Notes under the pieces: generated by a model | Databases searched by the model: none | What the model saw: only the letters and a program-made list of their open reading frames with translations | What the model was told of the DNA's origin: nothing | Position numbers and translations under genes: made by a program | Part shown: in pieces, positions 23,742 through 25,237 of the stretch | Layout of the letters: each line of letters opens with the position of its first letter | Position numbering within the stretch: the stretch's first letter is position 1 | Origin: Microbacterium sp. SORGH_AS_0862 | GTDB lineage: Bacteria; Actinomycetota; Actinomycetes; Actinomycetales; Microbacteriaceae | Length of the DNA: 64,000 nt | Assembly (NCBI RefSeq): GCF_030818795.1 | Contig: NZ_JAUTAY010000001.1 | Span: 372,001-436,000, forward strand | Direction of reading: 5' to 3'

Positions 23742-23826
23742 GCGACATCTGCACGACCGCTGGGGCTGGTGTGACCTGGCGGGACGCGTGGGGCTCCGGA
23801 AGAGTCAGCCGTCGTGCAGATGTCCG
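23742..23826. repeat. 85-bp inverted-repeat element, copy 1
   Basis: Begins GCGACATCTGCACGAC and ends CGTGCAGATGTCCG, so the ends are inverted repeats of about 12-14 bp. The stem extends inward (ACCGCTG against CAGCCGT). The right end stops one base before the DUF559 stop codon (23828). It matches copies 2-4 in length (85 bp), in the left 15 bp, and in the GCTGG and GTGCA blocks. Probably a mobile or structural RNA-like hairpin unit. Confidence 0.75.
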
Positions 23827-23827
23827 G

Positions 23828-24665
23828 TCACTGAAGCGAGACGATCCGCATCCGGGACAACGTCGCCGTGATCGCGCGCTGCACGCGCGGCCAGTCGTGC
23901 ACGACGAGTGCATAGTCGAAGCGCAGGGTCTCGTACCCCTGCGCCGCGGCCTCCGCGTCGCGTACCAGATCCTTGTGGCGCAGGCTGACCCCATCGTGAT
24001 TGAGTCGGCCGTCGACCTCGATGATGAGCCGCCCGTCGACCAGGAAGTCCACGACTCCGATCCCGCGGATGAGGACCTGACACTCGAGGGAGATGCCGAG
24101 CAGACGCAACCGCAACCTGAGCAGGGACTCGAGACCGCTGTCGGCGTCGGGACGCGCGAGGTCGACGAGCCAGCGGAACCTTGCCGGGAGGCGCCTTCGC
24201 ACGTGTGCCCGATCGGCCTGGTCGATCAGGCCCAGGCGCCAGGCCGATTCGAACGCCGCGAAGAAGCTCTCCGCGCCGAGACAGGCCGGCAACTGCACGA
24301 GCGCCTGCACGATCGAGACGACGCCGAACGCGGAGGCACCCGCATCCCGATGCACGATGCACGCGCACGACCGGTGGGGATGCGATCGACCGTCGGGTCC
24401 GAGCCAGACGTGCAGGGTGGGGAGCGCCTCCAGCACCCACACGCCATGGACCCGAAGCGCCGCCGCGCAGGCGAGCTCACCGCCGTGGGCCGCAGCGTCC
24501 CGGACATCGGGGGTGCGCACCGAGCGCGTACACGCCCTTCCGCACGCGCTCGATGGCTCCGCGATCGGCGGCGCGCGCGAGGGCGCTGCGGGATGCGCCG
24601 AGCTGGCCGGCACGCGCGACACCGCCCAGTGCGCGGAGGCGGTCGGCGATCTTCACGGAGTCCAT
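23828..24665 (-). pseudogene. DUF559 (Vsr-like nuclease fold) protein, apparent frameshift
   Basis: An N-terminal winged-helix segment (MDSVKIADRLRALGGVARAG, then RKGVYAL), like the AbiEi-type domain, joined to a C-terminal DUF559 nuclease-like domain: GIGVVDFLVDGRLIIEVDGR, then HKDLVRDAEAAAQGYETLRF. The Asp and Glu of VDFLVDG and IIEVDG fit the metal site of Vsr/PD-(D/E)XK enzymes. The two halves are in different frames. Removing one G from the G5 at 24510-24514 joins GAHP to DVRDAAAHGGEL. ATG 24665 follows GGGAGGG. Family role unknown. The 85-bp elements flank it on both sides. Confidence 0.75.
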
Positions 24666-24794
24666 GCGCCCACCCTCCCGCGGTACGTGGCGCGAGTCGG
24701 GCCCCGTCCCACCGACGCGGGATGACTCACGGGACGCGAGCGCGTGGGGAGGTGCGGTCGCGCGCACACCGCGAGCTCGCCTCCGTCCGTTCCT

Positions 24795-24879
24795 GCGACA
24801 TCTGCACGATCCGTGGTGCTGGCGTCGGGCCATAGGGCGCGTGGTGCGACCGTCCACCGATCCGCCGTGCACATGTCGC
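24795..24879. repeat. 85-bp inverted-repeat element, copy 2
   Basis: GCGACATCTGCACG at the left and CGTGCACATGTCGC at the right pair over 14 bp with one mismatch. Inside, GATCCGTGG opposes CCACCGATC to lengthen the stem. Almost identical to copy 4 (about five differences). Confidence 0.8.
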
Positions 24880-24966
24880 GCCTCGCGGTGGCCGGCCCCG
24901 GCCCCGGCAGCGGACGAGGACGGCTCCGCTCGGCGGGCGCGGGTCCGACTTCTCGAGCGCCGCGGC

Positions 24967-25051
24967 GCGACGTCTGCACGATCGGTGGTGCTGGTTTGCG
25001 CTGGTGCGACCCGTGTGGCGCCCAAGCGGCGATCCACCGTGCACATGTCGC
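24967..25051. repeat. 85-bp inverted-repeat element, copy 3
   Basis: Starts GCGACGTCTGCACGATCGG and ends CACCGTGCACATGTCGC. Same length and same left GGTGGTGCTGG block as the other copies, but a diverged middle, so it is an older or separately derived copy. Confidence 0.78.
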
Positions 25052-25152
25052 GCCGAGACGCTGCGCGACAGCTCGCGGGCGCACGAGAACCTGAGCGCCG
25101 ACGTACGCGATGGCACGGCGGAGCCGGCTGGTCACGCACCCTGGCCGATCCT

Positions 25153-25237
25153 GCGACATCTGCACGATCCGTGGTGCTGGCGTCGGGCCATGGGGCGCGT
25201 GGTGCGACCGTTCACCGATCCGCCGTGCAGACGTCGC
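25153..25237. repeat. 85-bp inverted-repeat element, copy 4
   Basis: Same length and nearly the same sequence as copy 2, ending CGTGCAGACGTCGC. Where copy 2 has CACATGTCGC this has CAGACGTCGC, which pairs with its own left arm (GCGACATCTG) about equally well, hinting at compensatory change. Confidence 0.8.

What the first reader, a model, noticed from the sequence alone, without database searches (positions are those of the whole stretch)
23742..25237. A family of four 85-bp inverted-repeat elements
Copies at 23742-23826, 24795-24879, 24967-25051 and 25153-25237 all measure exactly 85 bp. They share the left end GCGACRTCTGCACGA, an internal G-TGG-GCTGG block, and a right end CGTGCASATGTC-type inverted to the left. 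Each can fold into a 14-bp terminal stem with extra inner pairing. Copies 2 and 4 differ at about five sites; 3 and 1 are more diverged. Constant length with changing sequence suggests a functional or self-propagating unit (REP/ERIC-like or a small RNA), not a random repeat.
Basis: seen in the sequence. Interest (0 to 1): 0.72.

Follow-up and report, generated by a model that had tools for sequence, protein, structure and literature searches.

The report
Nuclease-linked 85-bp palindromic DNA repeats
The four repeats belong to a large family of 85-base palindromes that flank, and are scattered around genomes with, a little-studied nuclease gene whose DNA-reading end changes together with the repeat sequence, which suggests an undescribed partnership between a repeat and a nuclease.

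Summary
In detail: four 85-bp copies with inverted ends, and 22 places in the 3.5-Mb genome (21 of 85 bp, one of 84). The RNA reading fails: the stem shows no covariation.

Copy 1 and copies 2-4 flank a frameshifted gene for an AbiEi-type winged helix fused to a Vsr-like (DUF559) nuclease. Such genes in Microbacterium are often flanked this way: of 140 flanks at 70 genes, 59 carry a base-centred palindrome in an 85-bp frame, against 2 of 140 control segments; 30 of 70 genes have none. Box sequence differs between genes, but the two flanks of one gene match (15% versus 57% mismatch, 0 of 5000 permutations). Among 43 genes, element similarity follows the N-terminal winged helix (r 0.58; partial r 0.52 given the nuclease domain, 0 of 1000), not the nuclease (partial r -0.08). 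Scattered copies often fit a resident subtype; one gene has only its two flanking copies.

Best reading: sites read by this nuclease's winged helix and kept or spread by it, working like REPIN-RAYT with an unrelated enzyme. Mobility is inferred. My searches found no description in print.

The parts
23742..23826 (+). 85-bp element, copy 1 (3' flank of the AbiEi-DUF559 gene; ends 1 bp from its stop codon; right end degenerate)
   Evidence: counterpart at the same place in G060 and G321
24795..24879 (+). 85-bp element, copy 2 (5' side of the AbiEi-DUF559 gene)
   Evidence: no counterpart in G060, aligned with a diverged element of G321
24967..25051 (+). 85-bp element, copy 3
   Evidence: aligned with the single upstream element of G060, 3 differences in 85 by eye
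25153..25237 (+). 85-bp element, copy 4 (4 of 85 positions differ from copy 2, by eye)
23828..24622 (-). Reading frame with the middle domain and the Vsr-like DUF559 nuclease domain of the partner gene (PF04480, residues 167-255 of this frame)
   Evidence: E 3.7e-8; 88% identical to the intact M. binotii gene over query residues 51-277
24477..24665 (-). Reading frame with the N-terminal AbiEi_4 winged-helix part of the same gene (PF13338), out of frame with the nuclease part: the window's copy is frameshifted
   Evidence: E 2.6e-8; 94% identical over 48 residues to the intact G060 gene

Best explanation
The four repeats are members of a family of 85-bp palindromic DNA sites that belong to an AbiEi-type winged helix / Vsr-like nuclease (DUF559) gene. 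SHOWN by computation: such genes in Microbacterium are often flanked, on one or both sides, by base-centred palindromes in an 85-bp frame; where both flanks have one, the two match each other. In several subtypes each arm holds two direct copies of a ~15-bp box about 19-20 bp apart (four boxes). The box sequence differs between genes and follows the N-terminal winged-helix domain of the protein. Scattered copies occur elsewhere in the window's genome (its own subtype) and in genomes with the CCCGATCTGC subtype. INFERRED: the winged helix binds the boxes, so that an element loads several protomers (the constant 85 bp fixes their phasing); the nuclease domain then cuts at or beside the element, and repair or replication copies the element (sometimes the whole element-gene-element unit) to new intergenic places. 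In this genome the local gene is frameshifted, so the population is probably inherited rather than expanding. Sub-probabilities: gene-element association 0.9; reading by the winged helix 0.8; nuclease-driven spread 0.45.
Against: No target-site duplication or strong insertion motif was seen in 20 flank pairs. The two absences found in siblings, 178 to 17 bp and 142 to 12 bp, look like sloppy deletions, not clean empty sites. Units sit mostly at a few shared loci (80 genes in 16 flank-defined loci, two holding 29 and 23), so the gene itself moves rarely. 30 of 70 genes have no flank over the threshold. The window's own elements, and the flanks of its gene, do not reach that strict threshold, because their inner halves are not symmetric enough. 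The genome's second gene has no scattered copies. Some genomes with CCCGATCTGC palindromes (G186, G341, G109, G001) are ones whose examined gene carries another subtype; their other genes of the family were not examined. The permutation tests do not model shared ancestry, and a gene-conversion origin of the matched flanks was not excluded.
Confidence: 0.55

Rival explanations
1. Operator / regulon: the elements are only binding sites by which an AbiEi-like protein represses its own gene and other genes; nothing moves.
Against: The 3' flank has an element about as often as the 5' flank (32 versus 27), which a promoter operator does not need. Scattered copies lie beside functionally diverse genes. 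A nuclease domain with invariant acidic and histidine residues in 40 of 40 aligned proteins is not explained.
Confidence: 0.25
2. Homing-type selfish nuclease: the protein cuts alleles lacking the unit and is copied by recombination; the flanking palindromes are its recognition or protection sites, and solo elements are relics left by gene loss.
Against: 22 places in one genome are many for relics of a gene that is usually at a few loci. No occupied/empty allele pair was found.
Confidence: 0.12
3. Ordinary MITE of some other transposase, whose resemblance to the flanks of the nuclease gene is incidental.
For: Terminal inverted repeats, dispersed short copies.
Against: Matched flanks, the 85-bp frame kept by unrelated box sequences and covariation with the winged helix are not expected. 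No Y1 transposase in the genome. Other transposase families were not searched for.
Confidence: 0.05
4. Structured RNA or bidirectional transcription terminator.
For: Each copy folds into a hairpin as RNA, and some copies lie between convergent genes.
Against: No covariation in the stem, no Rfam match, three copies in a row between divergent genes, and a base-centred box design better suited to duplex recognition (inference).
Confidence: 0.03

Closest known systems
REPIN-RAYT (REP doublets and their Y1/HUH transposase)
   Same: Dispersed short inverted-repeat units with diverse centres, a resident enzyme gene kept largely at fixed loci and inherited vertically, local clusters of copies
   Different: No Y1_Tnp (PF01797) in the genome; the associated enzyme is an AbiEi winged helix + Vsr-like nuclease; 85-bp frame with four boxes in several subtypes; the gene itself often sits between two elements
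AbiEi / Rv2827c autoregulatory inverted repeats
   Same: AbiEi-type DNA-binding domain; multiple (two or four) repeats next to its gene
   Different: Boxes of ~15 bp with period 19-20 in an inverted 2+2 array instead of 23-bp repeats; element also downstream of the gene and dispersed; protein carries a nuclease domain
EDxHD homing endonuclease I-Bth0305I and Vsr endonuclease
   Different: Fused to an AbiEi-like module; flanked by palindromic sites
MITEs
   Same: Short non-coding elements with terminal inverted repeats
   Different: No target duplication seen in 20 flank pairs; transposases other than Y1 were not searched for

Membership tests
REPIN-RAYT | Two inverted REP sequences around a short diverse spacer | tested here: met
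   Inverted ends, variable interior; definition from PMC8049555, passages
REPIN-RAYT | A RAYT (Y1 tyrosine transposase) in the genome | tested here: not met
   PF01797: 0 matches in the own genome; the control search rings in 5 of 14 genomes
REPIN-RAYT | Enzyme gene vertically inherited, mostly not copying itself | tested here: met
   80 genes in 16 flank-defined loci, two loci with 29 and 23; orthologous elements in siblings
REPIN-RAYT | Elements replicated by the partner enzyme | not testable with these tools
   Needs an experiment; only association and covariation are shown
AbiEi operator | Multiple repeats next to the gene of an AbiEi-domain protein | tested here: met
   PF13338 in window and relatives
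AbiEi operator | Repeats confined to the promoter | tested here: not met
   3' flanks 32, 5' flanks 27 of 70 genes; dispersed copies
AbiE type IV toxin-antitoxin system | Adjacent AbiEii (DUF1814) toxin gene | not tested
   Neighbours of the window gene are dapA and a NUDIX gene (named by me); DUF1814 was not searched for
EDxHD / Vsr-like nucleases | Nuclease fold | tested here: met
EDxHD / Vsr-like nucleases | Conserved acidic and histidine catalytic residues | tested here: inconclusive
   E179, D206, E216, D218, H223, D232 invariant in 40 of 40, but not superposed residue by residue on the known active site
MITE / DNA transposon | Target-site duplication | tested here: inconclusive
   None seen by eye in 20 flank pairs; no clean empty site to define the target
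Structured RNA | Compensatory changes in the stem | tested here: not met
   no Rfam match

The most novel reading that the evidence does not exclude
AbiEi-DUF559 proteins of Actinomycetes are a new class of DNA-mobilising or gene-drive nuclease. Each co-evolves, through its winged helix, with a private palindromic site of fixed geometry (85 bp in Microbacterium) that bounds the gene and is copied around the genome, a REPIN-RAYT analogue built from a Vsr-like nuclease. Switches of box and winged helix at one locus would be specificity switches of a selfish or domesticated system.
Probability: 0.4. Interest if true: 0.9.

Novelty: new variant of a known kind. Interest (0 to 1): 0.76.

Why it matters
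A gene family for which I found no described function, matched in 303 of 366 same-genus genomes and named in the sources only as 'endonuclease domain', 'DUF559', 'very-short-patch-repair endonuclease' or 'AbiEi antitoxin domain' protein in the rows that bear a telling name, would gain a cognate DNA site that can often be read off the genome next to the gene, with many naturally occurring specificities. That makes binding and cleavage directly testable, and it would extend enzyme-partnered palindromic repeats, known from RAYTs, to an unrelated nuclease fold.

Tried and rejected
Small RNA: no Rfam hit and no covariation. RAYT: no Y1_Tnp. First version of the DUF559 idea, that every element has a DUF559 gene beside it, fails: 4 PF04480 places in the genome, one of them beside R1 elements; the link holds from the gene outward, not from each element. 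Viral contigs: no match to the exact end pattern. Phages and plasmids: no match with copy 4 as the only query. Precise empty sites and target duplications: not found. NCBIfam: no family for three of the proteins. PADLOC: only AbiEi models match. PDB by sequence: one irrelevant hit. Outside the genus: both flanks of one gene of another genus of the family (G494, L309) pass the 85-bp score; other long palindromes, some with even centres, flank some further genes; several loci have nothing over the cut-offs; not pursued.

Errors of mine: the protein-versus-element correlations (r 0.10) and the pair tables used some antisense translations; one search picks frames by tblastn and replaces them. For the same reason the 5'/3' tally (24 and 35) was wrong; with strands from tblastn (20 of 70 changed) it is 27 and 32. 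The tally by flank number (19/21/30) does not depend on strand. The gene tally merges one and two flanks; one search gives the right one. One search printed an unfiltered list and was cut. The 70 loci are the 30 best loci returned plus 40 picked by hand from the next rows of its list, some rows skipped, so not a random sample. The 43 genes are those of 72 with at least one flank over the threshold; the frameshifted window gene was left out.

Literature: searches (listings seen); passages seen in PMC7319586, PMC8049555, PMC3943268. No paper in that open library holds DUF559 with AbiEi or with 'inverted repeat'; most subscription papers are not covered.

Full report
OBSERVATION. The four repeats are present at the stated coordinates, each 85 bp. 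In the whole genome (one contig, 3,504,869 bases; the window is C1:372001-436000) the covariance model R1, built from 20 copies, finds 22 places at E of 1.1e-6 or better: 21 of 85 bp and one of 84. A scan of GTDB r220 contigs with the spacing left free (43-73) found one other organism, Microbacteriaceae bacterium PS02066, with three elements, all of 85 bp (the exact end pattern was required, so diverged relatives are missed). In 366 same-genus genomes (own included), 64 have an R1 match at E of 0.001 or better (at most 12 candidates per genome were scored, so counts per genome are minima). The genus is Microbacterium: the G060 protein is identical to P0001, named M. binotii by its source.

NOT AN RNA. 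No Rfam family matches. In the terminal stem 91.8% of cells pair, against 92.1% after shuffling. The two variable pairs (columns 6/80, 8/78) change independently, and none of the five measures stands out from the shuffles. The ends therefore behave like two copies of a degenerate DNA motif, GCGACRTSTGCACG, not like a stem.

STABLE POSITIONS, KEPT LENGTH. Many own elements have an element at the orthologous place in siblings G060, G290, G321 or G059. In 37 orthologous pairs at 14 places, 34 of the sibling elements are 85 bp long. The outer 15-bp ends are 90% identical on average, the interior 79%, and the adjoining 60 bp 79% and 78%. Ends of different elements within one genome are 87% identical, interiors 64%, unrelated flanks 61%. 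So ends and length are maintained while the rest drifts. Two absences look like deletions of 130-160 bp, not clean empty sites. Upstream of the NUDIX gene the window has three elements, G321 two and G060 one. No target duplication was seen.

THE PARTNER GENE. Copy 1 ends 1 bp from the stop codon of a minus-strand gene, and copies 2-4 lie on its 5' side. The gene has an AbiEi_4 winged helix (PF13338) and a DUF559 nuclease domain (PF04480). In the window these two parts lie in different reading frames, so this copy is frameshifted. The orthologue in G060 is intact (278 aa). In G281 and G040 the orthologous gene beside dapA also has an element on each side.

ASSOCIATION ACROSS THE GENUS. A search with the G040 protein gives matches in 303 of 366 genomes (E of 1e-30 or better). 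All of the 12 best genomes, and 22 of the 30 best, are among the 64 that bear R1 elements, against 42 of 336 others (relatedness is not controlled for, and the query comes from an element-bearing genome).

85-BP PALINDROMES OFTEN FLANK THESE GENES. Genes in genomes without R1 matches (for example G285, G316) are flanked too, by palindromes of other sequence. In several subtypes four copies of a ~15-bp box sit at fixed offsets (0, 19, 43, 62 for the TGCACGA core in G316 and G263). Over 70 genes (140 flanks), centres chosen only by the inner half predicted the outer half (at least 9 of 15 matches) in 45 of 140 flanks against 3 of 140 far segments. Matching drops to background beyond 42 bases from the centre, and centres between bases show only a weak excess (0.36 against 0.30). 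With the combined score, 59 of 140 flanks pass against 2 of 140; 19 genes have both flanks, 21 one, 30 none. With strands taken from tblastn the passing flanks are 32 on the 3' side and 27 on the 5' side. In the window itself 1 of 26 intergenic gaps and 3 of 239 segments pass; the window's own elements do not, since their inner halves are not symmetric enough. That the GGTGC-type inner blocks of the window subtype are degenerate boxes is my inference.

MATCHED PAIRS AND THE READER DOMAIN. The left and right elements of one gene differ at 15% of box positions, those of different genes at 57% (n 19; 0 of 5000 permutations). For 43 genes with correct reading frames, element distance correlates with protein distance: whole protein r 0.49, N-terminal residues 1-48 r 0.58, middle 0.50, nuclease 0.31 (each 0 of 1000 permutations). 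Given the nuclease domain, the N-terminus keeps r 0.52 (0 of 1000). Given the N-terminus, the nuclease has -0.08 (954 of 1000) and the middle 0.15 (2 of 1000). Pairs such as L227/L264 share the nuclease (distance 0.14) but not the N-terminus (0.56) or the element (0.65). The same genomic locus carries many box subtypes. The natural reading is that the winged helix binds the boxes. Shared ancestry is not modelled beyond the partial correlation.

SCATTERED COPIES. The palindrome CCCGATCTGCNGA-N17-TCNGCAGATCGGG (up to 2 mismatches) occurs in 27 of 366 genomes, not in the window's genome; the reversed control is 0 in every row shown. In G048, G086, G251, G225 and G014 two copies about 1.0 kb apart bracket the gene, and further copies lie elsewhere. 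Against a simple rule: G186, G341, G109 and G001 also have such palindromes although the gene I examined there carries another subtype; their other genes of the family were not examined. The window genome's second gene (752147-752947) has two TCTCGGA four-box elements, one on each side, and none elsewhere at up to 3 mismatches.

MECHANISM. Shown by computation: association, 85-bp geometry, matched flanks, covariation with the winged helix. Inferred: binding, cutting and copying. The family works like REPIN-RAYT, where a vertically inherited enzyme spreads short inverted-repeat units (PMC8049555, passages), but it is not a member, since the defining transposase is absent. AbiEi proteins are known to bind multiple repeats in their promoters (PMC7319586, passages), which makes an operator role the strongest rival; elements behind the gene and far from it argue against that being the whole story.

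NOVELTY. No paper in the searched open library joins DUF559 with AbiEi or with inverted repeats, none joins REPIN, RAYT and Actinobacteria, and none joins 'very-short-patch-repair endonuclease', Microbacterium and repeat.

Noticed in passing
window 23828-24665 (-): The AbiEi-DUF559 gene of this genome is split between two reading frames (frameshift), while siblings G060 and G321 have an open frame; a sequencing error was not excluded.
   Followed up: partly
G000:C1:751961-753051 (L310, L318, L319): A second AbiEi-DUF559 gene of the same genome is bracketed by two four-box TCTCGGA palindromes, 1022 bp apart, with no other copy in the genome at up to 3 mismatches.
   Followed up: yes
L041 (around G000:C1:449307): A third DUF559 gene has a long palindrome nearby with repeated TCCCACTTCCCGCA-like boxes, but with an even (between-bases) centre.
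   Followed up: no
L293, L295, L308 (G236, G494, G472): Some AbiEi-DUF559 genes have similar long palindromes with even centres on both sides, suggesting other fixed lengths in other lineages.
   Followed up: no
G000:C1:1305256-1305497 (L025, L153): Two elements 157 bp apart share their left flanking sequence, so they look like a local tandem duplication, and may overlap the 3' end of a reading frame.
   Followed up: no
L103, L104, L105 (G204, G272, G082): Clusters of three elements in direct orientation at 139-229 bp spacing, like the three upstream copies in the window.
   Followed up: no
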